64,000 bases of DNA from a virus (IMGVR_UViG_3300037882_002640:30811-94810); one strand, 5' to 3'. Positions 14,094 through 37,697 are shown, numbered from the stretch's first letter. Translations and numbers: made by a program. Notes: generated from the sequence alone by a model not told the origin.

Positions 14094-14547
14094 ATTTTTC
14101 TACTGTTAAATCAGGTATGCTCCAGACTTCTCCTGAAGGATTTAGTGTAATATCAACTCCCTTTAAAGCCCAGTACTCGACCATCGCAGGGTCTGCATCA
14201 AATATCAGCCTATTAGAGTATAGAGGATGGGTGGGGTTCCTAGGAAAGTGTTTGTCCACATAAGTCCTGTCGACTTGTGTGTATTTACCCTTAATAAAGG
14301 GTTCGACAACCTTCTTATAGTCACCCTCGCTTATAGTGAACGTATAAACGGCTTTTTCCCCGTCTCTCTGCATGTTGACGAATGTGGGGGCAGTAGAGAG
14401 TTTGTTATGTGTTTGTTCATCGAAAGTACTATATACTACCTGTAAGGTGTTACCCTCACCAATATAAGTATTTTCAAATGTTTCTGTGGTTAATCCACTA
14501 ACTCCAATGAGTGGAGTCAGGAAAGCTGATGTTTTATTGTACGCCAT
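14050..14547 (-). CDS. Unknown protein in replication block
   Basis: 165 aa, soluble, no signal peptide, no motif recognised. It sits between the PD-(D/E)XK nuclease gene (14-nt overlap) and an unknown gene (44-nt overlap), so it is translationally coupled to the nuclease. Stop TAA. Confidence 0.6.
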   Translation of the reverse strand: MAYNKTSAFLTPLIGVSGLTTETFENTYIGEGNTLQVVYSTFDEQTHNKLSTAPTFVNMQRDGEKAVYTFTISEGDYKKVVEPFIKGKYTQVDRTYVDKHFPRNPTHPLYSNRLIFDADPAMVEYWALKGVDITLNPSGEVWSIPDLTVEKYEFNGFTAWTQTST

Positions 14548-15457
14548 CGAACACGTCTAGTTTTATTACCCCTCCTGAATCGAAGAGATACTTGGGCATA
14601 TCCCAGTAGTCGTTACTGCTATGCCATAGGTAGTCGTCTAATAAGCCCTCTATACCTGGGTATGTCCTGGTGCCTATCTTTCCCCCCTTCAGACCAGCTA
14701 AACGATCGTTGGGGGAAGTGACGAATATTATTGCAGATCTTGTCGATTTCACATTTGTTTCTGCGACTATGAAAACAAAGTCGAGAAGTTTATATCCTTC
14801 CTCTAGTAAGTGCTTTATTGGGGACTGCCCACTGAGCAGCGCTTGCTCATAGAATGCACATTGTCTATAATATCCAAAGGAAAGGAAGGAATCTGGAAAA
14901 TCAAGCACAGATTTGCCTGTTGTCTTTAAATCAAAGGGCTGAATGGTTTTATCAATGTGATTAATTCTAATCCCATCTAATAAAGCTTTACATTCAACAC
15001 CTTTGAAGTCAAAATAAATATCCACCTGGTGCATTAATTCATCCCCATACTCTGACAGTTGAAAGTAACCAATTGTGGGGGGGTTTGATAGTAGTAGTTC
15101 TTTAGCTTTACTTACTGAAGCCATCATATCCTTGGTTAGGAGGATACGCTCATCCTTACTACGCACCTCGTTATAGTACGCTACAGCACTATGATCATTT
15201 CAGAACATCCCAATAACCCTTGTTAAGGAAATTTTATATCCCGATTTATTGTAGGCTTCTTCATAGTCTTCTTTTTGAGACATCGGGGATATACCTTCGG
15301 GTAAGGCGTTAACAAAATTAGCCATGAAGCTAGTCGGCTTTTCTATATCCACTACCCTAAAATCTTCCTCTCAACGCTCTGGTGAGGTTAGAAGACAATC
15401 CACTGCTGCGCCTACACTAAAGAAGGATTTCTCCTCTTCCACTATTACCCCATCCAT
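14534..15457 (-). CDS. PD-(D/E)XK (RecB/Cas4-like) nuclease, two TGA codons read as Trp
   Basis: About 307 aa when the TGA codons at 15200-15202 and 15371-15373 are read as Trp; otherwise only the last 210 codons are open. The core reads LLDGI, then PFDLKTTG: an Asp about 15 residues before D-x-K, the usual PD-(D/E)XK active site of RecB/Cas4-type DNA exonucleases. Expected role is processing of DNA ends in replication or recombination. The start is the ATG at 15455-15457; another ATG lies at 15467-15469. It overlaps the endonuclease I-like gene upstream by about 40 nt. Stop TAA. Confidence 0.75.
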
Positions 15458-15914
15458 CTGAAGTTTCATGTAGCGGGGATTTTGTAGCGCTGAGAGCAGG
15501 GAGTTTGATACCCTCTTGGTTTGGAAGTATTGTTTTATCTTGTCCACCTAGTTCTTTTATGATTTCTATACATTCGTCTAATTGTTTATTGTTCCTAGGC
15601 ATTAATAATGTATAAGGAGCACCTAAGGTGTGGAGCATATGTTTAAACAATTTCCACCTCAAATCGAAATCAGGGCGTCTATGCCCCTTTACCTCCATTA
15701 TCCAGTTACTACCCACAAAGTCTGGTTTATAGGTTATTGGCAAGACCAATTTCCTTTTCTTTACCAATTGCCTACCTCTTCCTTCGTAAACATCTCCTTC
15801 AAAACTGAACTGAGGCGAAAGAATTATACTCACAGGTTCGTAAGTAAAACTTATATTCGCCTCAGTCAGTTTGTCTCATGCCCTATCTTCCAAGGGGGAT
15901 CTCAATTTTTGCAT
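15417..15914 (-). CDS. T7 endonuclease I-like Holliday-junction resolvase, one TGA read as Trp
   Basis: 165 aa after reading TGA at 15876-15878 as Trp, which supplies the N-terminus (context DRA-W-DKL). The motif YKPDFVG...WIMEVKGH gives the D...ExK of the PD-(D/E)XK phage endonuclease I family, followed by a DLRWKLFKHM helix typical of it. Known role: resolving branched DNA during phage replication and packaging. The start ATG overlaps the upstream TAA. Stop TAG. Confidence 0.78.
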
Positions 15915-16603
15915 TACTTTAATGACACTGGACCTCTTAGTGCCCCAGTATTTTCAATCTGCTCTACTGCTTCTTCTACCGCGTCCTCGACAATTACTTC
16001 TGCTATAGCCCCCACTATTCTATCTTCCATGGCGTTTTTTACAATGTATGGAATCAACTCTTTAGGCACTTCGCCTATTTCCAGAGTATTGGCATCCACC
16101 ACTGAGTACCCTCCATTCGGGGCTTTAGCAAGTACAACCACCGCTATTGCTAGGTCTAAAGCCCTGGCCACGCCCATAGCTGTTTTTGCAGCGTGCGGAT
16201 TCACTTGTTCGTGATTCACTACCCCATGTTTAACGTAGTTCGTAGGGTCGCCCAAGTACACTTTTCCTTGGGAAGCTGCTGCAGGACATACTGTGACAGA
16301 GGTTACGGTTTTAGGATTAACATTCGCCTGAATGATTGACCCTGGGGTTTCAGCGTGTTTACCAATGGAGGTTAACTTCTGTATGAAACCGCCTCCCATT
16401 TCGCCGATTTGACCACCTGCCATGATACGTGTACCATACCCACAATCAAGTGAATCTAATTCTCTCTCAGAGAAGGAGTTCCCGACAGGTAGATAACTTG
16501 GCACGTTGAAGCCAGTCTTCTTGGCCAACTCCATCAGCATCAATTTATCTTGTGTCAGTGCTTGGTCCTCTTCGAGGATGTTTAATAGATTTTGCATATG
16601 CAT
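15914..16603 (-). CDS. Unknown 229-aa protein
   Basis: Soluble protein with a Gly-rich segment (MAGGQIGEMGGGF) and an acidic C-terminal helix (IVEDAVEEAVEQIENTG). No family recognised. It lies between primase-side genes and the resolvase, with TAATG coupling to the resolvase, so it may belong to the replication module. Two ATGs near the start (codons 1 and 3) are possible. Confidence 0.65.
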   Translation of the reverse strand: MHMQNLLNILEEDQALTQDKLMLMELAKKTGFNVPSYLPVGNSFSERELDSLDCGYGTRIMAGGQIGEMGGGFIQKLTSIGKHAETPGSIIQANVNPKTVTSVTVCPAAASQGKVYLGDPTNYVKHGVVNHEQVNPHAAKTAMGVARALDLAIAVVVLAKAPNGGYSVVDANTLEIGEVPKELIPYIVKNAMEDRIVGAIAEVIVEDAVEEAVEQIENTGALRGPVSLK

Positions 16604-16611
16604 ATTAACAG

Positions 16612-16905
16612 TTAAAATTTTAAAATTTCAAAATAAATCGTGTCCGCTATGGATTCTCCTTGGTCGTACCTGTAGTACTGCATGGAGTCCTGCATAATTT
16701 CTTGCACTACTATACGCCTATCGAAACGAGTGACCCCGAATTCTACCAGCGTATCCCTCACCACCTCTTCTCCCCTGTCAGAATGCTCTGTGTAAACTAT
16801 TGTTGTTTTTTGAGTGTACGTTGTGGGGTTAACAGCATGTACTAAAAGTGCAGTTAAAAAAGCAGTCACGATAATCACGATGATTGCGCTAATATGGGAC
16901 TTCAT
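16612..16905 (-). CDS. Small anchored or exported protein
   Basis: 97 aa with an N-terminal hydrophobic segment (AIIVIIVTAFLTALLVHAV, residues 7-25) after a short start, consistent with an uncleaved anchor or signal peptide; the remainder is polar. Function unknown. It overlaps the primase 3' end by 17 nt. Confidence 0.6.
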   Translation of the reverse strand: MKSHISAIIVIIVTAFLTALLVHAVNPTTYTQKTTIVYTEHSDRGEEVVRDTLVEFGVTRFDRRIVVQEIMQDSMQYYRYDQGESIADTIYFEILKF

Positions 16906-17893
16906 AGTTTGAATTTGTTGTTTTTAGCACTTTGGACAAGCGCTTTTTTAAGTAGCGAAATGAAAAGTGGCTTTTCCGCAATTTCACTAAATCTGATATG
17001 TCCTTCGCTGCATATAAGAACATTAGTTTTAAACGATATTCTCCGCTCAATCTGTGTCCATGCTTAAGACCGCTCTCATCGTTATCATACAACACTACGA
17101 TATGTTCAAACCTTTCTTTCAAATTGTTGAATAAATCCTCAAAAATCCCATCTCGATAGCCCATACCCTCTCCATTAAACGAAATCGCAGGAATCCCCAT
17201 TTCATAGAGAACCATCACATCCTTCATAGACTTTGTAACTATTAGAAGTTTGCCCTTTTTAGGGAGTTGCTGTAAACCAGCTATGTCGTCTATAGACGAA
17301 TTGCCTCTTCATTTCTTAGTCTTATCTGGACTCAATGGCCTATATAATTTGATTCTTCCTGATGGAAAGTAATAAGCAAAAATTGGATTGTCGGTAGTCG
17401 CTCGAAATTGTATTTTCTTATTTCTGTACACGCTCTGGACGCCATGTACATTAAACTTCTTTAGAGTCTCTGGCGTGATCCCAAACAGGGAAAAGTATGG
17501 GTGTAATTTTTCGGAAACTACTACATCAAGCTCCACATCCTCTTCCTCCAACTTGCTTACATTTACAGCCTTAATCAAGTTTCGATCTTCTCTTATTTTC
17601 TCCAACGCATGTGCATAAGTGAGGTTGTACTTGCACCGAACTATTGATGCCCACGAGTAGTGCACTCCAGTCGCAAAGTCATGAAAGAACAAGGTATCAT
17701 TTTTACTGTAGTAAAAACCGCAACTAGGATTATTATCTTTCCTTAGTGGATTGCGGAAAAGCACACCCAATTTTATCTCTAGACCTAAATAGAAGCTAAG
17801 AATTTGCTCCTGAGTTAAGTCCAGGTAGGTTTTGGTTGTTATTATTCAGTCTTTAGCTCTGAATTGTAGTGATTGGTTCGTATGGTTCGACAC
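16889..17893 (-). CDS. DnaG-like TOPRIM primase, two TGA codons read as Trp
   Basis: About 334 aa when TGA at 17309-17311 and 17846-17848 are read as Trp. The N-terminal part (FRNPLRKDNNPSCGFY, then FFHDFATG) matches the CHC2/primase N-terminal domain; the C-terminal part is a TOPRIM fold with LLIVTKSMKDVM and VLYDNDESG, the DxD metal site. The usual EG of TOPRIM motif I is KS here, as in other phage primases of this sort. Role: synthesis of RNA primers on the lagging strand. The start is unclear: the frame opens at 17902 and the GTG at 17891-17893 is the best codon seen. Stop TAG. Confidence 0.82.
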
Positions 17894-18128
17894 TTGATTT
17901 TGTTATTTCTACTGTATTTAATCTCTTTGTTTCCATAAGATAACACTCAATTTGCCATATTGGGCAGATGTACGGGGACACTACTCGTATCCCCGTACCA
18001 CCTACTTTTTTGTTTAGACTGTTAACTCCTGAATAGGAGAACCTTACGACTACAAATTCATTGATTTGCTCTTGAACTACTTGTATTATCTCCTCGCTGT
18101 TCTTCTTTAAGAAATCTGATACTTTCAT
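17853..18128 (-). CDS. Small unknown protein upstream of primase
   Basis: 91 aa, soluble, with a mixed alpha/beta look (EFVVVRFSYSG, GIRVVSPYICP). No family recognised. It overlaps the primase start region and the gene upstream by about 70 nt. Stop TAA. Confidence 0.55.
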   Translation of the reverse strand: MKVSDFLKKNSEEIIQVVQEQINEFVVVRFSYSGVNSLNKKVGGTGIRVVSPYICPIWQIECYLMETKRLNTVEITKSSVEPYEPITTIQS

Positions 18129-18339
18129 ATAGCGTGGCTATTGGTGGGTAGAATTTGCGGACATAAACATCCTTTCTATTCACCCTAGTGGAATGATGCA
18201 TTTTTAATACTAGAAACAGGAAAATTCCAGCTTCTCGTGTACTCAGCCCCAGACTTCTCATAGTTTCATTCCACACCTCAAGGTTAGAATGGGTGGTCAG
18301 GGGCTTCTTCTTTTTTACCGTCTGAGTTGCTACTTGCAA
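18058..18339 (-). CDS. Small unknown protein with uncertain end (TGA stop or Trp)
   Basis: 93 aa to the TGA at 18058-18060; if TGA is Trp the frame closes at TAA at 18022-18024. The N-terminus is basic (KKKKPLTTHSN) and a hydrophobic helix (AGIFLFLVLKM) follows. The 3' part overlaps the next gene by over 70 nt, so the true end is uncertain. Function unknown. Confidence 0.45.
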   Translation of the reverse strand: MQVATQTVKKKKPLTTHSNLEVWNETMRSLGLSTREAGIFLFLVLKMHHSTRVNRKDVYVRKFYPPIATLYESIRFLKEEQRGDNTSSSRANQ

Positions 18340-18871
18340 TGTCTTTGAGTTCTTTTTGTGAAAAATTTAAAGTTGAGGGGACCCCTTCTGTGTACAATTC
18401 CATATACCCATTGTATGCTGGTATGTTAGCATACACAGTGGTTCCACCCTCTTTCTTTTTGGTTACTTTAGGTACAACCTTTAGATTTACCTTTGTCCCT
18501 TTAAAGCCGTTGGTTATAGTGATTGCTTTTTCTGCAAATTCCGTGTACGTTTTCGCGGTTAATTTGTCTATGCTCGCTTCGTCCCCTACTACACTTAGTA
18601 CGTAGGTCAGTGCGACCACATTTCTGTGTTGTTCCCGTTCAAGCGCTTCGGCGGGAGTTTCCATCACTTTATCAGCCTTCTCGAAAGGCATTGCGCCAGT
18701 TGGTTTGAACAACCGTTTACGCGCAAACCGTTTTTCTGTATCTATAAATGTGATATCTATGGAGTCTCCATCCTTTACCAGTCCGCTAAAGGTTACACCT
18801 TCGTGTATCCCTACTGGTATACTACCTACCGACGCTAGGTCGCTCTCGAAAATTAATTTTGCTTGAAACAT
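18284..18871 (-). CDS. Putative single-stranded DNA-binding protein
   Basis: 195 aa, rich in beta-strand-like segments (SIDITFIDTEKRF, KVNLKVVPKV), ending in EEAPDHPF, very like the acidic Pro-Phe tip that bacterial and phage SSB proteins use to recruit partners. It lies directly between the RecA-like ATPase and primase genes, where an SSB is expected. The OB fold itself was not verified, so the name is an inference. Stop TAA. Confidence 0.5.
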   Translation of the reverse strand: MFQAKLIFESDLASVGSIPVGIHEGVTFSGLVKDGDSIDITFIDTEKRFARKRLFKPTGAMPFEKADKVMETPAEALEREQHRNVVALTYVLSVVGDEASIDKLTAKTYTEFAEKAITITNGFKGTKVNLKVVPKVTKKKEGGTTVYANIPAYNGYMELYTEGVPSTLNFSQKELKDIASSNSDGKKEEAPDHPF

Positions 18872-18875
18872 TGTT

Positions 18876-19535
18876 TTATCCTTCTTTTTCTATAATTGTG
18901 TCCACAACGAACTTCAAGTCGTTGGGAATTCTTGGTGGGAATACTCCCATCACAGACCTAGCCTCATTTATTCCGTTAGAATTGGTCTGTAATTCATAAA
19001 GTGGCTCTCCAGCGTCAAAAGTTAGATCTGTATAGAGATTGTATGTGAGAAATGAATTCAGGTTAATCTTAGTGAGCTTCTTGCCATTAGTTTTTATCCT
19101 TAAGCATTGCGCACCATTCATCTCGTAAGCCTCTACATGAGACATTACGATTACTGTAAAATCTTCCCGACTCAAGTCTCTAATTGCTTTAAACAGATCA
19201 TAGACCTCGCTTGCTAAGTCAGCCCATTGGTCTCTTGATGGGTTCTTGAGTATCTCCATCTCTGCATTTGTCATTAAAGTAGAGATGGTGTCAATAACTA
19301 CTACCTTAACTTCTGGCACCTTATCATGGATACTCTTTACAAAAGTCTCAGCTTGCTTTGCAGTGCTGACCTTAAAGTAATTTTTATTTGCAGTATTGTA
19401 ATCTTTCTTTCACCCCACCCAAGCCATTCCTTTGCCATCGCCATCTAGGAATACTGTGCTTTTAGGATCTAACGTCATTACTCCTGTGGTCTTCCCTGTT
19501 GATGGGAATCCCGAAATCATTATTAATCTACTCAT
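18876..19535 (-). CDS. RecA-like P-loop ATPase, one TGA read as Trp
   Basis: 219 aa when TGA at 19410-19412 is read as Trp (context WVG-W-KKDY). The N-terminus has a Walker A motif GFPSTGKT (residues 9-16) and residues about 78-84 have a Walker B strand VVVIDT. This is the RecA/Sak4-like ATPase of phage recombination systems, expected to act with the neighbouring SSB-like protein in annealing or strand exchange. Without the TGA reading the P-loop is cut off from the Walker B part. It overlaps the DnaB-like gene by 8 nt. Confidence 0.8.
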
Positions 19536-20526
19536 TTGGGTTTCTCTCGCTTATTTGGTTCTTATTGAATTGCTCTATACATGCTATCACTACTGGAGTT
19601 CCAAACCGCTCCTTAATAACATGCAGATATATCATGGATTTATTTAGAGTGGGGTGTATTACTGGAAGTCCATGTGGAAACCCATCTCTTGGGGGCCCAT
19701 AGTATGCACCCATTCCTGAAACCACCACAGGCCTATGAAGTATCACAACATAATCAGAGCATTGATACGCTGAAGATGATGCGAATAAGTCATTCTGGGT
19801 GGGGTAGTGTAATTTAGGGTTTGATACCCTCTCGTTACTTTGTATATCACGATTAAGTTGAGACAAAAGTACGAACATTATTTTGATATTTTCGTGTGAA
19901 AAATGTTTTTTTAATTCCACGAGTGATAAATAAAGTTCGTCCACCCTTTGCTTTTCAGCCTCTCCTTTATTGTTTTTAGTTAGGAGGGTGTGATCAATAG
20001 TCACTACTAATCCTTTGTTTTCACTTTGGAGATTTCTAACCTCAGCAAAATTAAGTATTGTCTGAGTAATATCTCTCGCTGTACCAACCTTATCTACATA
20101 GAATATAGGCAGCAAAGCAATATTCTCAACTTCATTCTCAATTTTGTTGTATAAATCCTGTGATATTGGAGTTTCAGAGGAATATATTTCCTTTAGGCCT
20201 ACACCTAAACTGCTAGATAAATCTCTAGCAATTTGGTCTTCCATGCGCATCTCGAACTCAAACGAAAGTATTTCAAAATTCTGGTCTTTGTTCAACGCAA
20301 TGAAATCTCTTCGCAACTCTGATAAGAATGTGGACTTACCACTTCCTGGCAAGCCCGCAACTGTTGTTATCCTTCACCAATCAAGGCCATTCAAGAAAGT
20401 CTTGTTAAACTTACTTTTAGAGGTCTTAAGTGACTTTATCTCCCCTGTTCGTAGAGAATGGATAAATTTCTTGGAAGAGGTAGCTGCATGAGATATGTGT
20501 CTTACATTAAGCGAGATCTGTTCCAT
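19528..20526 (-). CDS. DnaB-like replicative helicase, one TGA read as Trp
   Basis: 332 aa with TGA at 20374-20376 as the first Trp of NGLDWWRITT, directly before Walker A GLPGSGKST. The upstream 50 residues (ATG at 20524-20526) resemble the DnaB linker (LRTGEIKSL). Later segments LVVTIDHT (Walker B) and MFVLLSQLNRDIQ match the RecA-fold core of DnaB helicases (IxxxSQLNR motif). Role: unwinding DNA at the fork. The N-terminal DnaB domain is absent. Stop TAG. Confidence 0.85.
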
Positions 20527-21046
20527 AGGTTACCGTTCTTGCTGGGGCTGCCACTTCGTAATCTAGAAACGTTTTAGACTTCAGAAAACTACTAGGCCCC
20601 TTCATATATGTAACTTTGTTTTCAGTATAGGAAGTTTTCTTTAGATATTCATAGTAGGCTTTAAGCCCTTCTATTATCACATCGAGGTCATACCTTAACC
20701 TCGCTTTAGTAAACTCTAGTTTAGATTCATCTCGATTTGTCCGTATGACTCTAGTTGACTCAAATCTGCCAAAACTATTGTCAAGAGGGTATGCCTTTCA
20801 GAACTTCTCGAACTCATCCTCATCAGATTCTACCCCACCTTCTAATTCTGTTACTAAAACATAGAAAGTGTTGGTGAGGTTACCAGCCCTATCTAAAAAC
20901 CCTAAAGTTTTCATTTTATTCATACTCTCTGTTGTTGGGTAGTTACCCCAATCCTCGTCTAAATACAGAGAGTAAAGATACGCAAATTCTTCTAAATCAA
21001 GAAGTAATTTCGTAACCGTTTTGTATAATTTATTAGTAAAATACAT
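20507..21046 (-). CDS. Unknown 179-aa protein, one TGA read as Trp
   Basis: With TGA at 20798-20800 as Trp, the protein continues from EDEFEKF into KAYPLDNSF and ends at TAA overlapping the DnaB-like start by 20 nt. Without it the frame would stop 270 nt before the helicase, leaving an unexplained gap, so the reading is well supported by spacing. No domain recognised; placed in the replication operon. Confidence 0.68.
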
Positions 21047-21299
21047 ATTCTTTTATGCCTTCTCGACCATTCGTTATATGGTCGAGTTCCGCTCTTTTTA
21101 GATCATCTATTGCTTTACCCCACGTTTCCCACAAATCTTTAGTCTGTTGGGAACCGTTGCTGGAGACCAGTACTTTCCGTTTACCTCCCTTCAAATAGTA
21201 ATATATCTGAACATTCCATAAACCCTCATTTCTGTAGACATGTATTTTGTAATCCTTGTAGTTGAACTTTATGTTATCTTTGATATTTTTTTTTGCCAT
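21033..21299 (-). CDS. Small basic unknown protein
   Basis: 88 aa, Lys-rich, with KIHVYRNEGLWNVQIYYYLKGGKRKV suggesting antiparallel beta strands and a basic surface; nucleic-acid binding is possible but unproven. Stop TAA overlaps the next start by 14 nt. Confidence 0.6.
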   Translation of the reverse strand: MAKKNIKDNIKFNYKDYKIHVYRNEGLWNVQIYYYLKGGKRKVLVSSNGSQQTKDLWETWGKAIDDLKRAELDHITNGREGIKEYVFY

Positions 21300-21301
21300 A
21301 C

Positions 21302-21529
21302 CTAGTAACGAAATAATATTTTTTCCAGGGATTCACATTCATCCTGTATATTGTAGTACAGAGAGAAATTTATGTCATACTCCCTAATAGATTTAGCTTC
21401 ATCCTTTTTTCCTGGGTAGGAGCCTACAAAAAAGTAACATATCACAGTGTTTGTATTGTTACTTGGCCTGTACTGGCTAGTTACCTGCACGCAAAACCTA
21501 CCAATATGGATAACTTTTATCTCCTCCAT
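21302..21529 (-). CDS. Small unknown protein
   Basis: 75 aa, soluble, no motif recognised. Stop TAG two bases before the next gene; its start forms TAATG with the zinc-finger gene upstream, so it is part of the same translationally coupled chain. Confidence 0.6.
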   Translation of the reverse strand: MEEIKVIHIGRFCVQVTSQYRPSNNTNTVICYFFVGSYPGKKDEAKSIREYDINFSLYYNIQDECESLEKILFRY

Positions 21530-22578
21530 TAGAAAGGGTAATCCAAATCAAAATCAATTTTTCTTTGTAAATTGAAATCAGGTTTAATAGTTTCAAGTTT
21601 TAGCACTTTGGTTACATTATGGTTATGAAATACCATCTTGTAGATGTAGTCTCTTTTGTTGTTAAAGACATAAACCACTTTGTCTGCGCTTCTTTTTACT
21701 ATGATGGGGGCCTTACCTTCGTGATTGCAGATCTTGCAAAGGTATGACTGGCCTTTTAAGTCCCAGTCTAGTTGTTCCCTGCTAAGCATCAAGTCAATTT
21801 CTTGTACTATATCACATTCACAGGTGAAGTGATTATACCTTTGAGTAACTCCTATACCTATAGTGTATGGGCTCATTCTTGAGTCGTGTGCTCTTTGGAT
21901 CGCTGTACATTCACCACAAAGATATGTATAATCTGCGATGACTGCAAATTTTCTCCAACTTTTTTCAGAGTTATCAATGAGATAATCTTCGTTGCAGTGT
22001 GCGCACACTCTGCTGTAACTCCTAAAGGAAAAGAGGTTCTCTCTTTTCCTACCGCTTGTATTTTTGATAAATGTTTCACAACTATCACAAACTTTAACTC
22101 TGCCTCCTGTAGTTTCGTTGTTCAAGTTAGAGTATTCCCTAGATACTGGTATATTTACTATTATCGAAAACATAGGCATGGCAGTTTCACAGAGGATACA
22201 GTACTCACTAAGGTCCATACCATCATAATATTTAGCATGTGAGTAGTAGTTACCTAATCGTGGAAGACCATAATTATGTATCATAGTATACCTGTCCAAG
22301 ATTTTATGATTCTTTCTTTCCATGACTTTCTTTTTTTCTGTTTTGATGCTATTTTGACATTCTTCGCAGGCAAATATGTGAAGGTTAAGTTCATTATACT
22401 CACTTGTAGACATAGAGTGTGTTGTCCTCACTTCATTTACGTGGAAGTAACACTCTCCCATTCTCGCCCCTGCCGTGACATTAGGCAACCATGTGTCATC
22501 AACAAACCTAAAGTCATGTTCAATGTACCGTCTTAGCCTCCAAGGGTATCTGGGGAGGTCGGAATTGATTTCAACCAT
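21529..22578 (-). CDS. Zinc-finger protein with several CxxC pairs
   Basis: 349 aa with CEEC (near residue 72), CILC, CDSC, CAHC, CGEC and CKIC pairs, i.e. at least three treble-clef or ribbon-like zinc sites. It ends DFDLDYPF, an acidic Pro-Phe tail. Trp codons are TGG. It lies just downstream of the SF2 helicase gene (46-nt overlap). Role unknown; HNH-like fingers are conceivable but no clear His-Asn-His catalytic motif is seen. Confidence 0.62.
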   Translation of the reverse strand: MVEINSDLPRYPWRLRRYIEHDFRFVDDTWLPNVTAGARMGECYFHVNEVRTTHSMSTSEYNELNLHIFACEECQNSIKTEKKKVMERKNHKILDRYTMIHNYGLPRLGNYYSHAKYYDGMDLSEYCILCETAMPMFSIIVNIPVSREYSNLNNETTGGRVKVCDSCETFIKNTSGRKRENLFSFRSYSRVCAHCNEDYLIDNSEKSWRKFAVIADYTYLCGECTAIQRAHDSRMSPYTIGIGVTQRYNHFTCECDIVQEIDLMLSREQLDWDLKGQSYLCKICNHEGKAPIIVKRSADKVVYVFNNKRDYIYKMVFHNHNVTKVLKLETIKPDFNLQRKIDFDLDYPF

Positions 22579-23690
22579 ATAGGTTTAATTTTTAAAGTTT
22601 TAGTTTTTACCCATTTTTCTTCCCTTGTTCCTTCAGTGTAAAGATTAAAGAATAAGGCTTTCTTATCCTTACCTAACCTCACTGTACGCCCAAGAGCTTG
22701 GGTAAATACCAGTAACGATGAGTCTCCTGACACTGAAATGCCAGCATCTAGACTAGGAATGTCTAACCCTTCATTTAGAGCATCAACACCTATTAACCTA
22801 CTTACTTTACCAGTTTCCATCCTTTCAAGGACCTCTGCTTTTGCTTTCTTGCTCATCTTAGAATGGTAAACTGCTGAATTAGGTAGTAGTTTTCCGCAAA
22901 TTTCAGCTTCTTTAATACTTTTGAAGAAGATTATCCATCTTCTCCCTGGGTATTGATTAACCAACTTTATAACGGCGTCCATCTTGTTACCGTTACTTCA
23001 TACCGCTTGCTTCCGCATAGTCATTGCCCCCCAAAATTCCTTACTAGCACTACTAACCTCCTTATCAGGATGATTTCTATAGTGTTTAGCGTTCTCGAAG
23101 GGGGATGAATATTCCAGGTTTTTTTCTTTGGCTAATCTCGCTAAATTCTTAGACGCTTGAATTAATTTAGCGTTGAACACTGAGTACCTCTTCCCATTCG
23201 ACTTATCGTTGGGTAAGGCTATGTTGTATACCGTGAAATCACTTATTGCCCCATCTTCTAGGGCTTCATCAACTGTTTTCTCCTTTGCTATTGGCGCAAT
23301 GCTCACCATAAAATCCAGGTACTCTAGATTAGATGGGGCTGTTGCTGTTAACAGTAAGGTGTAGTTTCTGCTTATGTTGGAGTATAAACTCCTGTAGGCT
23401 GGGGAAAGGCTTCGGTGCGCCTCATCAACTATGAGTAGATTAACGCTTTTCTTCTGCTTGTACGCTGAATTAATTGTTGTAACCTCAGCCTTTCCCCCCA
23501 CCACTTTTTTTCATGCCTCAACTAAATTTACTCTAGATGAGACGATCAGTACTTCTCCTCCAATAAGCTCTACTGCCATTTGACCGACCCTGGTCTTACC
23601 ATATCCTGTCGGGAGAAGCACTGTGACGTGTTTATGTTCTACTAATTTATTTACCGAATCCAATTGCTCGGCATCTCTGATGGTTTTCAT
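22533..23690 (-). CDS. SF2 DEAH-box helicase, two TGA codons read as Trp
   Basis: 385 aa when TGA at 22998-23000 and 23511-23513 are read as Trp. Motifs in order: Walker A LPTGYGKT (residues about 26-33), DEAH box LIVDEAHRS, motif III LLTATAP, helicase C domain with WIIFFKS, and motif VI QALGRTVRLGK. This is the UvsW/RAD3-like SF2 helicase commonly found in phage replication modules; expected role in branch migration or recombination-dependent replication. The start ATG overlaps the upstream TAA. Stop TAA. Confidence 0.88.
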
Positions 23691-24547
23691 TAGTTATGGG
23701 CATTACATATTTTATATTTAGCCGATATTTGGGTATTACACCCAGACACCTGGCATTCGTGTGTAGTTAACTTACAGCCTCTGCATATTTCGCCTCCTGA
23801 AGATACCCGACTTGTTGCGCACCTAGCACAATAATGTATTTTTCTGCTGTCGCAATTGTCACATAAACCTTCACGAGTCAAGTCATATCCTCCAGGTAGC
23901 CTAACATATGCGCCACATCTCAAGCAGTTATCTGCTGAATCCTTTTCACATGTATTGCAGAGAGTCTTGGTGTAGTCATTACTCTCGAATCTGCACTTAC
24001 AATTAGAGCAAACATTTGAATGCTCTAGACAGAACTTAGATCCATTTATGGTGTGTTCACTGCATATTAAGCAGTAATTTGGGAAAATACTCCCACAATG
24101 ATCGCATTCTCTGTCTTTACCTAAGTATACGTCACACTTTGGGCATTTCCTGTTACAAGACTTGCATGTAGTATCGGCCAATAAATCATCCCCACAACCG
24201 GGGCATATACCAAAGGTACAACCTCTGCATATATTATCCGAATTTATTTTCTTAAACAAATTACACTTAAAACATTTACCTAGTTTAGGGCCGTTATCAA
24301 CGCTTACACAATCATGGACAGTCGTAGAAGGGTATACTTCCGCACAAGTTTTGCACGTTACATGATGCTCTTTTAAGCAGTCAATACACATTGCTTTTGC
24401 AACTGCTCTGTCTTCTGCAGGGCTTACCCATACACCCACTGTTAAATTGGCCGTCTTACCACACTCTTGGCAAGGACTGTGTATACACATGTCGCATAGT
24501 TCTTTAGTGGAACTAATAAGTGTATCACATTTAAAGCATGTGTTCAT
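23690..24547 (-). CDS. Cysteine-rich zinc-ribbon array protein
   Basis: 285 aa made almost wholly of Cys-x-x-Cys knuckles (CFKC, CDMC, CQEC, CIDC, CKTC, CRGC, CPGC, CKSC, CPKC, CDHC, CLIC, CSNC, CNTC, CLRC, CDNC, CARC and others), spaced 10-15 residues. Roughly ten zinc ribbons in tandem are implied. No catalytic motif is visible; a scaffold or nucleic-acid/protein-binding role is likely. It sits between the SF2 helicase and a membrane protein. Stop TAA coupled to the helicase start. Confidence 0.75.
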   Translation of the reverse strand: MNTCFKCDTLISSTKELCDMCIHSPCQECGKTANLTVGVWVSPAEDRAVAKAMCIDCLKEHHVTCKTCAEVYPSTTVHDCVSVDNGPKLGKCFKCNLFKKINSDNICRGCTFGICPGCGDDLLADTTCKSCNRKCPKCDVYLGKDRECDHCGSIFPNYCLICSEHTINGSKFCLEHSNVCSNCKCRFESNDYTKTLCNTCEKDSADNCLRCGAYVRLPGGYDLTREGLCDNCDSRKIHYCARCATSRVSSGGEICRGCKLTTHECQVSGCNTQISAKYKICNAHN

Positions 24548-24636
24548 ACAAACACACTGCGCACCTAAGGTGCACTTCTTTACCTTCCTGCCAAAGTGTG
24601 GCGACGACCTATTTATACATGTGAATGTACGGGTAA

Positions 24637-25647
24637 CTAGTTTGGGAGTACTATACCTAGGCCACCATCAAGGATGGAATCCTCAAAGAGAGCTCTAACA
24701 GCGTCGACTTCGGGTTTTTTACCCTCGTTAATCCTGTTGCTGATTTCAGCAAATGTTAGCATTAGTTTGATTGCAGATTCTTTTTCTGCTTCATCATCAG
24801 ATGACGAGTATCTATCCTTTGCTTCCACCACCTCTGCGTATATCTTGTCTGTTTTGGTCTTATCAGTTATACCGATATACTTAAGCAAATTAAGCACAAC
24901 AGATTTATCCTTGTCTGGATTCTTGGGCTTATCATCTCCGCTACTAGCAGGGGTTGTACTTTGCTGCCCTTTATCATCCTTCATGTAGTTCTCGCTATTA
25001 GTTCCTAGTGAGTAGAATATCTCCACCACTAAGATTAAATAGTGTACTACTATAGTGGCGATCATTAAGATTATTGGAGCAGCTAGTATTGCCCAAGGAG
25101 AGGTGTAGACCCTTAATCCCATTTGCAAGCACTCTTGCACATACTCCTGTTTATTAGTGAACGGGGATATCCATGAGTAAAACAATCCTAGGTGTGGAAT
25201 TTCTCCCAAACCCGCAGCCATTATGGTCAAGTTGAAGTAGGGCGGTAGAAACAGCCCCAAAAAAGAAACCCCCATGATAATGACGTTTATCAACATTGTC
25301 CCGAATTTCGACTTAATAAAACTGTCATAGATTGCTGCCATGGTGGAGGCAATAATCATACCAGATACAAACTGGTAAAATCCTAGGATTATATGAGTCA
25401 TAATCCTAGCTATAGGATTAATTTCCACCTTAGCCCCCGCTAAATGGGTAGTGGCCGCAACAAGACATTCCCCCACTGTGGCTATCAGTAGGATGACTAG
25501 CAACCACCCCGAAAAATCATTTCGGAATTGGTTCAGAATTAAATCTGTCAGTTTTTCATCCGGGTTTGAGTTTTTTAGGCGGATGAGTACTATGGCCACG
25601 CCAATAATCCCGCAGACAGCGAGAATTGAAATTAATAGATCCGACAT
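24637..25647 (-). CDS. Polytopic membrane protein, unknown
   Basis: 336 aa. At least five hydrophobic segments lie in the first 215 residues (LLISILAVCGIIGVAIVLI, WLLVILLIATVGECLVAA, FVSGMIIASTMAAIY, LINVIIMGVSFLGLFLPP, AILAAPIILMIATIVVHYL), followed by a charged cytoplasmic tail with a Ser/Pro/Asp linker and helices. Adjacent to the DNA polymerase gene (start next to its stop), so it may tether replication to the membrane, but this is speculation. Stop TAG. Confidence 0.7.
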   Translation of the reverse strand: MSDLLISILAVCGIIGVAIVLIRLKNSNPDEKLTDLILNQFRNDFSGWLLVILLIATVGECLVAATTHLAGAKVEINPIARIMTHIILGFYQFVSGMIIASTMAAIYDSFIKSKFGTMLINVIIMGVSFLGLFLPPYFNLTIMAAGLGEIPHLGLFYSWISPFTNKQEYVQECLQMGLRVYTSPWAILAAPIILMIATIVVHYLILVVEIFYSLGTNSENYMKDDKGQQSTTPASSGDDKPKNPDKDKSVVLNLLKYIGITDKTKTDKIYAEVVEAKDRYSSSDDEAEKESAIKLMLTFAEISNRINEGKKPEVDAVRALFEDSILDGGLGIVLPN

Positions 25648-27495
25648 TTATTTTGTCCATATTGTAGAGTGAGAAGTGTCACTCTTTGGTGAGCAATTTT
25701 TTAGTAAGAGTTTCCCAGCCTGCATCATGGCGGAGCTAACTACTTGCTTTACTTTTTCCACATCTTCATCCCTGCACCTAATAACCCATTCATCATGGAT
25801 TAAGATACATATCTCGAAATTGTGGATACTGCTTAATTTTCTTAAGAGATTACCAGCTAGTTTAATCATATCCGCTCCAGTTGACTGAATTGGGTAATTA
25901 AATGCTTTTCTCCTTACTTGGGATTCAAACTTATTAATCCATTCCTTCATCGCTTGGTTCTCGTAGCCCCTTGCAATTAAGTCCGAATAAATTTTCTTAG
26001 CTTTTAGGTACTCGTCATGCCCTTCAAATAGTATTCTCCTTTTAGAGTAATTGTTGGTTATTACGTAACCATCTATTAGGGCCTGTGCGGCCTTCTTTTC
26101 CAATCCCTCTATCAGAGTAGGGTACAACGCTTTAACGTCCTCTACGGCCTTTCTAGCCACCTTCATAGGCAATCCGAATTGACTTGCAATCTTTCCTGGA
26201 CCACCACCATACAGAATTGTAAATACGATGGTTTTCGCAATCTGCCTATGTAGTGATGGAATCATATTCTCACCCCAGACTACACTTGCAGTTTTCAAAT
26301 GCAAATCAACTCCTTCCTTAAACCAGTCAAGAATTTTAGTCTCCCCATATAAATCCGCAGCTATTAACACCTCTTGTGAGGAGTAGTCAGCAGTTACAAA
26401 GGAATAACCTTCTCCTGCTTCAAAACAGTTGCGGTACTCATTCATCCTAGGAATTTGCTGCATATTAGGATTAGACGATGAAGTTCGTCCCGTGTCCACC
26501 ATTTGCATGTAACTACTATGGATTTTGCCAGTAAGTGGGCTAATCTTTGATAGAAATTTCTCACCATATGATGTCTTAAGTTTCATTAACTTCTTATACT
26601 CCAAATACAAATGTACAAGTTCATTATCAATCTTAGACAGGACAGTGGAGTTTACCCCCTCTTTTATTTCACCTGTTTTCTTATCTATAAACGAAACTGA
26701 TACACCAGTATTTTTCATCAAATCTAGAACTTGCTTTGGCGAGTTCCAGTTGATATCCCCATACACCGAAAGTTTTTCCAGAGACTTTTCAATTTCATTT
26801 TCCTGGTGCTTAATTAAAGCATTTCATTTATCGCGGTTAACATCCACACCATTAAGTTCCATGTCCGCTAAAACCAAAATAAATTCCTTTTCGACTAGGT
26901 TGTAGACATCCAGTAACCCGTCTTTTTCCATTTTAGCATGTAGGACTTCATATAGTGTGTACGTGTATTCTGTGTCTTTTGCAGCATATGCTGCTTGCTG
27001 TGGGGTTAGCTTCCCACCAAATGTTCGTCGGATGTCCTTAGTTACAGTGTAATCAAATAAGTCAGTCTGTAGCGTATACGCATACTTGTCAACATATTCC
27101 CTAGCCATACTTTCTAATGAAAAAGTACCTTTAGGGTTTGTTAAACCTAACTTAATTAACTGCCCCATAACCATGGTATCATCTACATCATTATGTACGT
27201 ATCCTGTGTGTCTTTTTATCACAGAATAATCGAATTTGCCATTATGGCAAATCCACCCTATCTTTTTTAACTTCCCTAGGAGCATCTTAGAAAATCCTTC
27301 CTGAACATCCACTAGTATAGTATAATCTTTACCTGTTATCTGTACAGTAAGAATCTCTTTGGCCTCATCCCAAGTAGTTTCCGTGTCCAGGGCTACCTTA
27401 TCTTTTATTTTACTACAAGCCTCAACTAAACTAATATTAATAAAGCCGTCAATCTTATAGTCCCCTACGAAATACCTAGTAAATTTCTTTGCCAT
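25648..27495 (-). CDS. PolA-family DNA polymerase with 3'-5' exonuclease, one TGA read as Trp
   Basis: 615 aa with TGA at 26824-26826 as Trp (VNRDK-W-NALIKHQ), joining an exonuclease half and a polymerase half. Exonuclease motifs: VALDTETT (Exo I, near residue 35), NGKFDYS (Exo II) and YAAKDTEYTY (Exo III). Polymerase motifs: A, DYSSQEVLIAADLYGE; B, RQIAKTIVFTILYGG; C, ILIHDEW. All catalytic acidic residues are present. No 5' nuclease domain, as usual for phage PolA enzymes. It is the replicative polymerase of the phage. Stop TAA. Confidence 0.95.
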
Positions 27496-27781
27496 CGATT
27501 TCTAAAAATCTGTCTATTTTGTAAGATGAGCTCGTAAACTCATCCATATTCCTTACCACTCCCTTACTAGATACCACCCTACGTATCTTCCTAATGCAGG
27601 TGAAATTATTTAACTTCACCTTTCACTTATCGTGTTGATAGGTAACTTGGTATTTGTCAGGCACCTCATCTAGGATGAAGGGAAGGCCCTTACCCATGTA
27701 TTCCACAAGTTCAGCCTCCCCTTCGTAACCTAAATTTTGATAAGGGTCAAGGTACACTGGTACCATCTGCCCTACCTTCAT
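27476..27781 (-). CDS. Small unknown protein, TGA read as Trp
   Basis: 101 aa from the ATG at 27779-27781 to TAG, overlapping the polymerase start by 20 nt. TGA at 27623-27625 falls in QHDK-W-KVKLNNF. Under the standard code this stretch would look noncoding; with TGA as Trp it is open over its whole length and fits tightly between its neighbours. The sequence begins MKVGQMVPVYLDPYQN; no family recognised. Confidence 0.75.
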
Positions 27782-27783
27782 AC

Positions 27784-28374
27784 TTACATTTCTATATGTA
27801 TGTGACTTCCTGTAGCGCTGGGGTTGTAAAATATATAAGGCTTACATTCCTCGCGTGTAGCGTAAGTTTCCACCTCTTTACATCCTGGCTTGCCTTCGAT
27901 GTACATAGTTAGCCCATGTTCTTGTAGCCATTTCTTACCAGATTCTGATACTAAATAATCTACAAGGTCTTGAGACAAATCTAAGTCGCAGGCTTTGCCA
28001 TGTTCATGTTCTGACTTTGTCCCCCAATTCCTACGAAGTGAGGTTATCATTGCCTTGGGACCACTGTACTCCCCCAGTGCTGTTTTTAAGGCACTACAAA
28101 TATCCGTGTTTACACCTCTATACAGTACAAACCCTAGAAAGTTAGCTTTGCAGCTACCGAATTTTTTACTTTTCGGATTCTTTCATGGGTGTATTTTCAG
28201 TAGTGTATCTAGTTGTAGTTTAATGGAGTCTGTTACTCCACCATACTCTAAAACCTCCATTTTAAGGTGTTCAAGAGCATCACGTTGGTCGTCGATAATC
28301 CTATTTTGTTTTATTTGAAAACTAATAAGTGCTGCGACCATTATACCCTGTAGTGCCAATCGTATGTCATTCAT
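27784..28374 (-). CDS. Membrane-anchored M15-type peptidase (D-Ala-D-Ala carboxypeptidase-like), TGA read as Trp
   Basis: 196 aa with TGA at 28183-28185 as Trp (KIHP-W-KNPK), joining an N-terminal hydrophobic segment (LALQGIMVAALISFQI, residues 6-21) and helix to the peptidase domain. That domain has the M15 zinc signature S-x-H-x-x-G-x-A-x-D (SEHEHGKACD) and a C-terminal HIHIE. It would cut peptidoglycan stem peptides, in lysis or entry, anchored in the inner membrane. Lies immediately upstream of the small TGA-containing gene. Stop TAA. Confidence 0.83.
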
Positions 28375-28419
28375 ATGTTTGCTGTCTTGTATTTACTAGT
28401 GCTCTAGTTCCAAGCACTT

Positions 28420-28707
28420 CTAGTTAGCGGGGTATAAAAGCTTGTAAGCTTTGTTTACTACAAAGAACTCCGCCACTTGGGCACCTGTATTTGGATGGTT
28501 ACGAGGAACAAACTTTTCGACTATTACGCCGTCTGATTTATTTCCGTTCCTATCGTAATACAAGTTAACGCCCCTTTTATCAGTAGTTCATGTCAGTCCC
28601 ACCTCGCTGTATGACACATTTAGCGCCATTCCAGTCCTGGCGGACCTCAAAACTACCAATCCACTGTTACTTAAGTAAGTAACAGCTCGCTCATCAATAT
28701 TGTTCAT
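28420..28707 (-). CDS. Small unknown protein, TGA read as Trp
   Basis: 95 aa from the ATG at 28705-28707 to TAG; TGA at 28588-28590 falls in VGLT-W-TTDKRG. It begins MNNIDERAVTYLSNSG and has beta-strand-like segments. No standard-code frame longer than a fragment exists here, and the gene fills the gap between its neighbours exactly. Function unknown. Confidence 0.72.
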
Positions 28708-28708
28708 T

Positions 28709-29269
28709 TTAACTTAGAATTGAAACAGGCCTTGGTCCATCCAAGTCCTCTCTTGGCAGTAGTAATTTCTGGAACTCTAAGTCCCATGAAATATACTCCC
28801 CACCTATCAACATGGCGTTGTTAGCCACGAAGCATCTCTTTTTATCATCGAATTGGATAGGATCGCGATAATCGCTTATCTTCACTATCCCCCCTTCGAT
28901 AATTAGTTTTACTGTCAACTCGTTCGCAACCTGCCACATGCAGGCCATCATAATAAAGGAGTTCCCTTCACATATTATCCTTACACTACGGTCATATAAA
29001 TATCTGTAATGCTTGTCACGTACAAACCCTTCTATGTGGTTTGGCCAATTACCAATTGGGGGTTTCCCATGTGGGTAATTGAAGAAGTGTGGGATATTGG
29101 TAGAGAACCCCTCAAAGTGGGGAATGTACAGGTAGTCCATTTTACTGGTACTGTCCCCAGGTAAAATTAACTTAACACTGTATCCCAACTCTAGGAGTTT
29201 GGATATATCGGGCAACTTTAATGGGTCCACCAAGACCCCTATTGTTACCTGTGAATTATTTTTGATCAT
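28709..29269 (-). CDS. Unknown protein, weakly glutamine-amidotransferase-like
   Basis: 186 aa. An alternating strand-helix pattern starts with VTIGVLVDPLKLPDI and continues VKLILPGD; a RIICEGNSFIMMAC segment resembles the nucleophile elbow (C-x-G-x-Q/S) of class I glutamine amidotransferases, but the catalytic His-Glu pair was not identified. Treat the family as a hint only. Stop TAA. Confidence 0.5.
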   Translation of the reverse strand: MIKNNSQVTIGVLVDPLKLPDISKLLELGYSVKLILPGDSTSKMDYLYIPHFEGFSTNIPHFFNYPHGKPPIGNWPNHIEGFVRDKHYRYLYDRSVRIICEGNSFIMMACMWQVANELTVKLIIEGGIVKISDYRDPIQFDDKKRCFVANNAMLIGGEYISWDLEFQKLLLPREDLDGPRPVSILS

Positions 29270-29429
29270 TAGCCAGTTTCTTTAGGCGAGTCAATAACTC
29301 ATACAAAAGTATGGATTTATTTTGACTGCACAAATTTATTTCCTTAAAGAAATTTTTTTTTGTGTGTTGAGGAGCAAATACTCTATGCATGCCCTCTTCT
29401 TCTGCTATAAATATACCTAGGCGGTTCAT
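29256..29429 (-). CDS. Small unknown protein
   Basis: 57 aa starting at the ATG at 29427-29429, just after the TGA that ends the preceding gene. Basic, ends KLANDQK. A longer frame to 29588 exists but would run antiparallel to conserved-looking coding sequence of the upstream gene. Function unknown. Confidence 0.5.
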   Translation of the reverse strand: MNRLGIFIAEEEGMHRVFAPQHTKKNFFKEINLCSQNKSILLYELLTRLKKLANDQK

Positions 29430-29436
29430 TGCCAAT

Positions 29437-29754
29437 TCAAGCTCCCCGTAGGTACGCTGCCTGCACTTGAATCTCTTGCCTAAGCTCTTCGATTTTGCGG
29501 GTGTATACAGTGATTTGTTTTTTGGCCCTGCCATACTTGATTTTTCTTTTATTATTGTACACTGCAATATCTTGGTACTTACGAACAACCCTACGTGCTT
29601 CTACAATGATTCCATGGAACCTGTTGTGTGCTGTGTTTACTTTTTCGTAGAGAAAAACTTCTTCCTTTTCATCAGGGGTGGGGAAATCGGGGAGTGGGTC
29701 AATACCGAGGTCTTCAAACCCCTCCCCTTTCAACCATCTTCTTTTTGCGTCCAT
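29437..29754 (-). CDS. Unknown protein with coiled-coil C-terminus
   Basis: About 105 aa from the ATG at 29752-29754 (MDAKRRWLKGEGFEDLG), placed after the lipoprotein stop. The C-terminal half (IIVEARRVVRKY onward to IEELRQEIQVQAAYL) is charged and heptad-like, suggesting a coiled coil. It ends at TGA 8 nt before the next ATG; a Trp reading would add 18 residues to a TAG. Function unknown. Confidence 0.55.
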   Translation of the reverse strand: MDAKRRWLKGEGFEDLGIDPLPDFPTPDEKEEVFLYEKVNTAHNRFHGIIVEARRVVRKYQDIAVYNNKRKIKYGRAKKQITVYTRKIEELRQEIQVQAAYLRGA

Positions 29755-29764
29755 GGTTAGTGAA

Positions 29765-30307
29765 TTAATAGTTAATGATTTGCCCCACTTTTGGGATTTT
29801 TGGAATGGCTTCACTAGGAATCCCTAATGCCTGTAAGACTTTTCGGGTTTCTCCAGGCCTTACTACATGCGTCTTAGTAACCTTCCTTGAATTGGATGGT
29901 AAAACGGCTGTGTACGCTATGTTACCTAGGTAAATTACTTGATTTGTTGTGTCAACCCGAACCGAATATATTTCCACCACTTTTCGTGGGAAATGATTTA
30001 TTCGATATCCAACAGCCCCATCCCCTAGTGAAAATATATCCCCTTGTGATATATGAACCGTATCTAAATCGACAACAATATTCTCTGGGGTAATAAGGAA
30101 CTTCTTAGGTTCCTCCACTATGGATTGATTTTCTAATATGAACTTGGTGAAGACTTCCACCTCACACTCTTCGCAGAACCCTGTAAGTTCTGGATTAGTT
30201 TGAGGAGTTGTAAACTCCTGTGGCAGGGCTTCGTTGCCACCGCATCTGGTGAGCAGTATAAGTAGTAATACCAGAATTGTTCTGGCGTAATAAACAATTG
30301 GTTGCAT
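29765..30307 (-). CDS. Lipoprotein with LysM-like C-terminal domain
   Basis: 180 aa. A signal peptide with hydrophobic core ILVLLLILL is followed by TRCGG, a plausible lipobox cysteine. The last 35 residues (HVVRPGETRKVLQALGIP, then PKVGQIINY) follow the LysM pattern used for peptidoglycan binding. Likely attached to a membrane and facing the cell wall; it may matter for superinfection or lysis. The first 174 nt overlap the upstream gene in another frame. Stop TAA. Confidence 0.68.
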   Translation of the reverse strand: MQPIVYYARTILVLLLILLTRCGGNEALPQEFTTPQTNPELTGFCEECEVEVFTKFILENQSIVEEPKKFLITPENIVVDLDTVHISQGDIFSLGDGAVGYRINHFPRKVVEIYSVRVDTTNQVIYLGNIAYTAVLPSNSRKVTKTHVVRPGETRKVLQALGIPSEAIPKIPKVGQIINY

Positions 30308-30753
30308 AAATTTTTAGGTGATGCCAAGAGAGCGGCGATTTGTATATGGTCGCTCCCTTGAAGGTTATCGAAATTTATTTTTAGTAGGTCTGAGGATGCA
30401 AAGTTAGGGTTTTCTTCCATGGCTCGCTTTATTGCTACTGGAAAATAATTATTCAGTTTTTCCCTGCAAAGCAACTCGTTTGCCAATTCCTGTTCCATCC
30501 TAGGCATCCGTGTACACCATAATGGGCAATATTTATCCCGTAACAGGGAAGTGTATGCTACTTCTCTACTAAAAATAGTAGTGCAGCGGATTTCCCACAT
30601 CTTTTTACCCTTATTGAGGACCATAATCGATGGGCCATAGGAACTCCCGTCTTCATACTTAAATTCAGGGGTAGCGTGCACAAAGTATCGGCTAGACCCT
30701 GTGTTAGATTGTAGTTCTACTTTATATGTAGGACCTGTATCGGTATTCTCCAT
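30133..30753 (-). CDS. Unknown 206-aa protein with long 3' overlap
   Basis: The frame runs to TAG at 30133 and overlaps the downstream lipoprotein by about 174 nt. The first 148 residues look like an ordinary soluble protein (CTRMPRMEQELANELLCREKL). Whether the C-terminal 58 residues are truly translated or the end is elsewhere cannot be decided from one sequence. Function unknown. Confidence 0.55.
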   Translation of the reverse strand: MENTDTGPTYKVELQSNTGSSRYFVHATPEFKYEDGSSYGPSIMVLNKGKKMWEIRCTTIFSREVAYTSLLRDKYCPLWCTRMPRMEQELANELLCREKLNNYFPVAIKRAMEENPNFASSDLLKINFDNLQGSDHIQIAALLASPKNLCNQLFITPEQFWYYYLYCSPDAVATKPCHRSLQLLKLIQNLQGSAKSVRWKSSPSSY

Positions 30754-32595: not shown

Positions 32596-32597
32596 AA

Positions 32598-33517: not shown

Positions 33518-33533
33518 TGTGATTAACTTTGAA

Positions 33534-33555
33534 GGGGGAAGGTTTCCCTTCCCCC
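33534..33555 (-). terminator. Hairpin terminator between two leftward genes
   Basis: A 9-bp perfect stem (GGGGGAAGG/CCTTCCCCC) with a 4-nt loop, 24 nt past the stop of the gene at 33.6-34.4 kb. The T-tract is short (TTCAAAG), so partial termination or mRNA processing is likely. Confidence 0.7.
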
Positions 33556-33578
33556 AATGATGAATGATAAATTGTTCC

Positions 33579-34445: not shown

Positions 34446-34524
34446 AGAGTAAAAAATAAATTAGTGATTTTAACTGTGTTAGGTTTTTTGGTAGGACTTT
34501 TCCTACCAATTACCTATACAGCCG

Positions 34525-34824: not shown

Positions 34825-34832
34825 TATATTTT

Positions 34833-37612: not shown

Positions 37613-37632
37613 AATTAAATTAAGATTTAAAA

Positions 37633-37692: not shown

Positions 37693-37697
37693 CATAT

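What the first reader, a model, noticed from the sequence alone, without database searches (positions are those of the whole stretch)
14534..28707. TGA read as tryptophan only in the replication block
Fourteen in-frame TGA codons fall in eleven leftward genes, all between 14.5 and 28.7 kb, e.g. 15200, 15371, 15876, 17309, 17846, 19410, 20374, 20798, 22998, 23511, 26824, 27623, 28183, 28588. Reading each as Trp joins split motifs into complete enzymes: PolA exonuclease to polymerase half, DnaB Walker A to its linker, RecA-like Walker A to Walker B, primase halves, endonuclease I N-terminus, M15 peptidase to its anchor. Several sit where homologues have Trp (RDK-W, ERA/DRA-W-DKL, EA-W-KK). Published work on stop-recoded phages reports recoding mainly in structural and lysis genes; here it is the replication genes, which is the reverse.
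Basis: partly seen in the sequence, partly recalled or inferred. Interest (0 to 1): 0.9.

Follow-up and report, generated by a model that had tools for sequence, protein, structure and literature searches.

The report
TGA-as-tryptophan phage, replication genes only
A crAss-like phage spells tryptophan with the stop codon TGA in its DNA-replication genes but not in its virus-particle genes, the reverse of what is reported for such phages, and unlike its recoded relatives it has no visible special tRNA to read that codon.

Summary
All 14 TGAs lie at the stated places, in frame, in 11 leftward genes; no TAA or TAG interrupts those genes. With the TGA masked, homologues carry Trp at 32.5% of residues in TGA columns, against 0.8% in other columns and 48.7% in TGG columns. 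In the 94.8-kb record, TGA is 14 of 53 Trp codons in replication genes and 0 of 124 in late genes (p=1.2e-8).

Relatives explain part of it. Four recoded relatives also concentrate TGA in replication genes (pooled odds ratio 3.9, p=6e-10) and in the terminase, with few in portal and none in the capsid protein or GroEL. Most recoded relatives carry a UCA-anticodon tRNA, usually just upstream of GroEL; the window phage has none in its sequenced part. Its 14 TGAs are followed by A (12) or G (2), the context in which ordinary tRNA-Trp misreads UGA. Replication-gene and late-gene trees agree, so a swapped replication module is unlikely.

Best reading: UGA is Trp, decoded imperfectly, tolerated in low-copy enzymes and purged from abundant or very long virion proteins; this phage is the extreme case. 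The assignment is well supported; decoder and cause are inferred, and the record ends inside the capsid gene.

The parts
14534..15547 (-). exonuclease (PHROG exonuclease VIII) with sense TGA at 15200 and 15371
15417..15914 (-). RusA-like / DUF1064 endonuclease with sense TGA at 15876
   Evidence: syntenic with the Holliday junction resolvase of cr115_1
16889..17893 (-). DNA primase with sense TGA at 17309 (conserved Trp column) and 17846
18876..19535 (-). Sak4-like annealing ATPase with sense TGA at 19410
19528..20526 (-). DnaB-like helicase with sense TGA at 20374 (not a Trp column in homologues)
20507..21046 (-). replisome-organiser-like protein with sense TGA at 20798
22533..23690 (-). SF2 helicase with sense TGA at 22998 and 23511 (the latter a Trp column)
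25648..27495 (-). DNA polymerase I (3'-5' exonuclease + polymerase) with sense TGA at 26824, Trp in 41/42 homologues
27476..27781 (-). unknown gene with sense TGA at 27623
27784..28374 (-). unknown gene with sense TGA at 28183
28420..28707 (-). unknown gene with sense TGA at 28588 (TGA also in G001)
28709..42706 (-). early block: no TGA inside genes; TGA ends several genes (29439, 32851, 38351, 38586, 39524, 41206, 41751, 42050)
   Evidence: gene-end count by hand
36..11068 (+). late block, left part: 3' part of a 5264-aa ORF (record 21726-37520) and a 1454-aa ORF, both without TGA
50071..64000 (+). late block, right part: small genes, GroEL 55859, TerL 57427, portal 59600, capsid protein 62928 (cut at the record end); no TGA
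50071..55858 (+). stretch upstream of GroEL where recoded relatives carry the UCA tRNA; none found here
47614..47692 (-). tRNA-Arg(UCU)-like gene without a D arm; not an opal suppressor

Best explanation
This is a Crassvirales phage in which UGA is translated as tryptophan. It belongs to a group in which several lineages do this, most with a UCA-anticodon tRNA. Decoding of UGA is less efficient than decoding of UGG, so UGA is tolerated where few protein copies are needed (replication enzymes, terminase) and selected against in abundant or very long virion proteins (capsid, portal, GroEL, giant RNA polymerase proteins). The window phage is the extreme: it has no visible UCA tRNA, keeps UGA only in low-copy replication enzymes and almost always before A, where ordinary tRNA-Trp misreads UGA best. 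SHOWN: the TGAs, the Trp assignment, the uneven distribution here and in four relatives, the UCA tRNAs in most recoded relatives, no UCA tRNA found in this record, the UGA-A context. INFERRED: which tRNA reads UGA here, that decoding is inefficient, that protein abundance drives the distribution.
For: 14/14 coordinates. Masked columns: Trp 32.5% at TGA vs 0.8% elsewhere, best amino acid W; same in G001. Rep 14/53 vs late 0/124. Relatives, TGA share of Trp codons rep vs late: G010 15/43 vs 11/107, G011 12/45 vs 14/82, G012 10/15 vs 14/110, G001 16/54 vs 11/125 (pooled p=6e-10); TerL 17/42, portal 3/41, capsid 0/17. UCA tRNAs in G001, G010/G013, G011, G012, G014 and L209, called tRNA-SeC(tca) by ARAGORN in three; none in standard-code G003 and G008. 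None in the window with a model that finds unseen relatives at 54-80 bits (window best 15.9 bits, its own Leu tRNA). +4 base A in 12/14 vs 13/39 after TGG (p=0.0013). UGA-A favours misreading by tRNA-Trp in E. coli (PMC5289835 citing Engelberg-Kulka 1981).
Against: No expression data. The record ends inside the capsid gene, so a suppressor could be in the missing part. Protein abundance is inferred from gene type. Three of 14 TGA columns show no Trp in homologues. Ordinary near-cognate misreading is usually a few per cent (general knowledge), which looks low for genes with two UGAs. Relatives with a UCA tRNA also show an A bias in replication genes (29/53), so UGA-A is not specific to a tRNA-less phage. 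L203 is recoded but its tRNA copy has an altered loop, so tRNA and recoding do not match perfectly.
Confidence: 0.55

Rival explanations
1. The phage encodes a UCA suppressor tRNA in the unsequenced part of its genome or in an unrecognisable form; late genes lack TGA by lineage history (recent gain or ongoing loss of recoding).
For: Record cut in the capsid gene. Relatives carry UCA tRNAs. Recoding is patchy in the group: L271 lies inside the recoded part of the replication tree with 1 TGA in its replication genes; L192 lies inside the recoded part of the late tree with none in its late genes.
Against: The tRNA's usual site upstream of GroEL is fully sequenced here and empty; the matching G001 stretch (64-80 kb) has no tRNA hit.
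Confidence: 0.25
2. The host reads UGA as Trp itself, so the phage needs no decoder; TGA gene ends in early genes only add short tails.
For: No UCA tRNA, RF1 or Trp/Tyr-tRNA synthetase in the record. The early TGA gene ends are followed by TAA/TAG within about 1-28 codons.
Against: About 8 of 32 early genes end in TGA, some in ATGA overlaps with the next start, with non-coding signal beyond 29439 and 11454; a host with this code gives no reason to spare late genes. Close relatives carry their own UCA tRNA.
Confidence: 0.1
3. Reversed timing control: UGA blocks replication enzymes until a decoder is present, delaying replication.
For: TGA is a stop in early genes and sense in the next block of the same strand.
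Against: Late genes, made after replication, have no TGA, so there is no sign of a lasting switch; relatives use TGA in the terminase too; no decoder found.
Confidence: 0.07
4. Mosaic genome: a replication module taken from a recoded phage sits in a standard-code genome.
For: Sharp block boundaries at 14.5 and 28.7 kb.
Against: Trees of late genes and replication genes both place the window as sister to the G001/G010/G011 group, with support 1.0 and 0.97-1.0.
Confidence: 0.03
5. Sequencing errors or decayed genes.
For: None found.
Against: TGA only, mostly at Trp columns; relatives show the same kind of TGAs in independent assemblies (L095/L096; L193/L195/L196/L198).
Confidence: 0.01

Closest known systems
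TGA-to-Trp (code 4) crAss-like phages of the Zeta group, e.g. Lera (PMC12386605; PMC7886860)
   Same: Crassvirales; TGA read as Trp; recoding switches at short phylogenetic distance; suppressor tRNA not always found
   Different: There TGA is mostly in structural and lysis genes; here in replication genes only, with 0/124 in late genes
Late-gene recoded phages (code 15 or 4; Borges 2022, cited through PMC9523058, PMC10136315 and PMC10746230)
   Same: In-frame stop codons in essential phage genes, with part of the genome in the standard code
   Different: That model gates late lytic genes; the distribution here is reversed and no RF1 or Trp-tRNA synthetase was found
Cellulophaga phage phi14:2 (Steigviridae) and Suoliviridae such as cr52_1, cr55_1, cr115_1
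   Same: TerL, portal, GroEL (phi14:2) and the replication gene order PolA - organiser - DnaB - Sak4 - primase - resolvase - exonuclease - giant late genes (Suoliviridae)
   Different: TerL only 33% identical to phi14:2; no in-frame TGA was seen in phi14:2 homologues
Unnamed IMG/VR group: G001, G010, G011, G012, G014
   Same: TGA = Trp; G001, G010 and G011 are the window's sister group by trees; TGA enriched in replication genes and TerL
   Different: They have some late TGAs and UCA tRNAs; the window has neither in its record

Membership tests
Crassvirales | Homologous TerL, portal and capsid protein | tested here: met
   (PHROG TerL 9.7e-107, portal 1.2e-104; capsid homologue in relatives)
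Crassvirales | crAss-like gene order: replication block facing giant late genes | tested here: met
TGA-to-Trp recoded crAss-like phages | In-frame TGA in conserved genes at Trp columns | tested here: met
TGA-to-Trp recoded crAss-like phages | TGA in late signature genes (TerL, capsid, portal), the criterion used by Yutin 2021 | tested here: not met
   0 in TerL, portal, GroEL and the sequenced 357 codons of the capsid gene
TGA-to-Trp recoded crAss-like phages | UCA-anticodon suppressor tRNA (frequent, not universal) | tested here: not met
   record incomplete
Late-gene stop recoding as timing switch | Recoded stops concentrated in structural and lysis genes | tested here: not met
   0/124 late Trp codons; endolysin free of internal TGA
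Late-gene stop recoding as timing switch | Standard-code host | not testable with these tools
   host unknown
Phages with a code-switch kit | Phage-encoded RF1 and Trp-tRNA synthetase | tested here: not met
   record incomplete

The most novel reading that the evidence does not exclude
A phage that uses UGA as a tryptophan codon without any suppressor tRNA, relying on ordinary tRNA-Trp misreading UGA before A, which limits the amount of its replication enzymes while its virion genes keep to UGG.
Probability: 0.2. Interest if true: 0.8.

Novelty: new variant of a known kind. Interest (0 to 1): 0.6.

Why it matters
Stop-codon recoding in phages is usually explained as a timer for late genes. Here, and more weakly in four relatives, TGA avoids late virion genes and collects in replication enzymes and the terminase. 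That fits a cost of imperfect decoding better than a timer and gives a simple rule to test: TGA use should fall with protein output and length. The phage also poses a clean question: what reads UGA when no UCA tRNA is visible.

Tried and rejected
Opal suppressor tRNA in the record: ARAGORN, Rfam (gathering and permissive), a hand-written cloverleaf scan, a relaxed anticodon-arm scan of gaps, and a covariance model from relatives; none found. The odd tRNA at 47614 was considered as a mutated suppressor; its loop matches a tRNA-Arg(UCU) in L202, so rejected. The 53033-53702 gap was checked for similarity to relatives; none. Selenocysteine or serine for UGA: scores strongly negative. Module swap: trees congruent. 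Absence of TGA stops in late genes as evidence for recoding: phi14:2, with no recoding seen, also has 1/36, so not used. Inheritance of TGA positions from a common ancestor: no significant association. IQ-TREE hit the time limit; FastTree was used instead. Single-protein scans with PolA and DnaB found no close relative.

Full report
WHAT IS THERE. The window is bases 30811-94810 of a 94,810-base virus record. The record is a Crassvirales phage: its terminase, portal and GroEL match PHROG families at 1e-104 or better, the terminase is 33% identical to that of Cellulophaga phage phi14:2, and the replication genes are in the order of Suoliviridae phages cr52_1, cr55_1 and cr115_1. Leftward genes fill 11-50 kb; rightward late genes fill the rest. 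The record stops inside the capsid gene.

THE TGAS. All 14 positions are TGA in frame. In the same stretch no TAA or TAG interrupts the genes. The TGA-joined frames give complete enzymes. Codon signal continues past the TGAs inside the block and stops at the gene-end TGAs at 29439 and 11454.

WHAT TGA MEANS. With X at each TGA, so that the alignment is not biased, homologues have Trp in 32.5% of residues at 12 TGA columns, 48.7% at 28 TGG columns and 0.8% at 3292 other columns; the best-scoring amino acid is Trp, then Tyr. In unmasked alignments PolA shows Trp in 41 of 42 homologues, SF2-60 in 58 of 60 (the other two have TGA), primase-195 in 100 of 144; DnaB-51, RusA-13 and SF2-231 show no Trp.

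DISTRIBUTION. Replication genes hold 14 TGA and 39 TGG; late genes hold 0 TGA and 124 TGG in 18,190 codons (p=1.2e-8). In the early block (28.7-42.5 kb) TGA appears only at gene ends, about 8 of 32 leftward genes between 28.7 and 50 kb by my count; no gene in the replication block ends in TGA. ATGA gene junctions number 4 here and 2-5 in recoded relatives, against 18, 8 and 7 in G003, G008 and phi14:2, which show no recoding.

RELATIVES. The closest large relative, G001 (IMGVR 3300048837_000398, also assembled in a second sample), has TGA in replication and late genes; its TGA columns are Trp as well. G010, G011 and G012 are similar. In all four the TGA share is higher in replication genes than in late genes (significant in three; pooled odds ratio 3.9, p=6e-10), and within late genes TGA is concentrated in the terminase (17 of 42 Trp codons) with 3 of 41 in portal and 0 of 17 in the capsid protein. 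Trees from late genes and from replication genes both make the window a sister of the G001/G010/G011 group, so the block pattern is unlikely to be a recombination scar. Recoding is patchy: L271 and L192 fall inside that group with one and no TGA in the genes seen.

DECODER. G001, G010/G013, G011, G012, G014 and L209 carry a tRNA with the loop CTTCAAA, anticodon UCA, in most cases shortly upstream of GroEL (about 4 kb upstream in G012; placement worked out from the coordinates). Most have a long variable arm and resemble tRNA-Sec; G011's has a short variable loop. G003 and G008 have none. The window has none at that site or elsewhere in the record. No RF1 or Trp/Tyr-tRNA synthetase was found in any of 12 records.

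CONTEXT. The base after the 14 TGAs is A in 12 and G in 2; after TGG in the same genes it is A in 13 of 39 (p=0.0013). Recoded relatives show a weaker A bias in replication genes (29/53). UGA before A is the context most prone to misreading by tRNA-Trp in E. coli (PMC5289835).

HOW IT PROBABLY WORKS. UGA is Trp but is read imperfectly. Few copies of replication enzymes are needed, so loss of some product is tolerated; capsid, portal, GroEL and the giant proteins cannot afford it. Without a dedicated UCA tRNA the cost is highest, which would explain zero late TGAs and the UGA-A context. The decoder and the abundance argument are inferences; no expression data were available.

WHAT IS KNOWN. TGA-to-Trp crAss-like phages are known (PMC7886860, PMC12386605), and a Zeta phage PolB with several TGAs is shown in PMC7886860, so TGA in a replication gene is not new. 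Published reports place recoding mostly in late, structural and lysis genes (PMC7886860, PMC10136315, PMC12386605, PMC9523058). A genome with TGA in replication genes and none in late genes was not found in the papers searched.

Noticed in passing
G001 (L175:11867-11963), G010, G012, G014, L209: UCA-anticodon tRNAs with a long variable arm, like tRNA-Sec or tRNA-Ser, in phages where TGA is Trp (columns tested in G001: not Ser or Cys). How such a tRNA would be charged with Trp is unexplained.
   Followed up: partly
window 47614-47692, minus: tRNA-Arg(UCU)-like gene that lacks a D arm and has a long variable region.
   Followed up: partly
G001 52617-64314: GroEL, TerL and capsid genes are each interrupted by an insertion of about 1 kb (homology breaks at 52871/53853, 56193/57280 and 62742/64006), possibly introns or inteins.
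   Followed up: no
L271, L272 (RXKB01000033, RXKB01000023): Two crAss-like phage contigs with DnaB 48-50% identical to the window's sit in a GTDB MAG named Candidatus Dependentiae; mis-binning or an unexpected host.
   Followed up: no
L009 (cr52_1) and L069: Two in-frame TAG codons in the RusA-like gene, so TAG-recoded phages can also carry recoded stops in a replication gene.
   Followed up: no
window 53033-53702: 670-base stretch without a gene between two late genes; no RNA family and no similarity to relatives.
   Followed up: partly
L203:6877-6963: Recoded relative whose tRNA copy upstream of GroEL has an altered anticodon loop instead of CTTCAAA.
   Followed up: no
window 51627-52049, plus: SLOG-family (YspA/DprA-like) gene in the late operon.
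   Followed up: no
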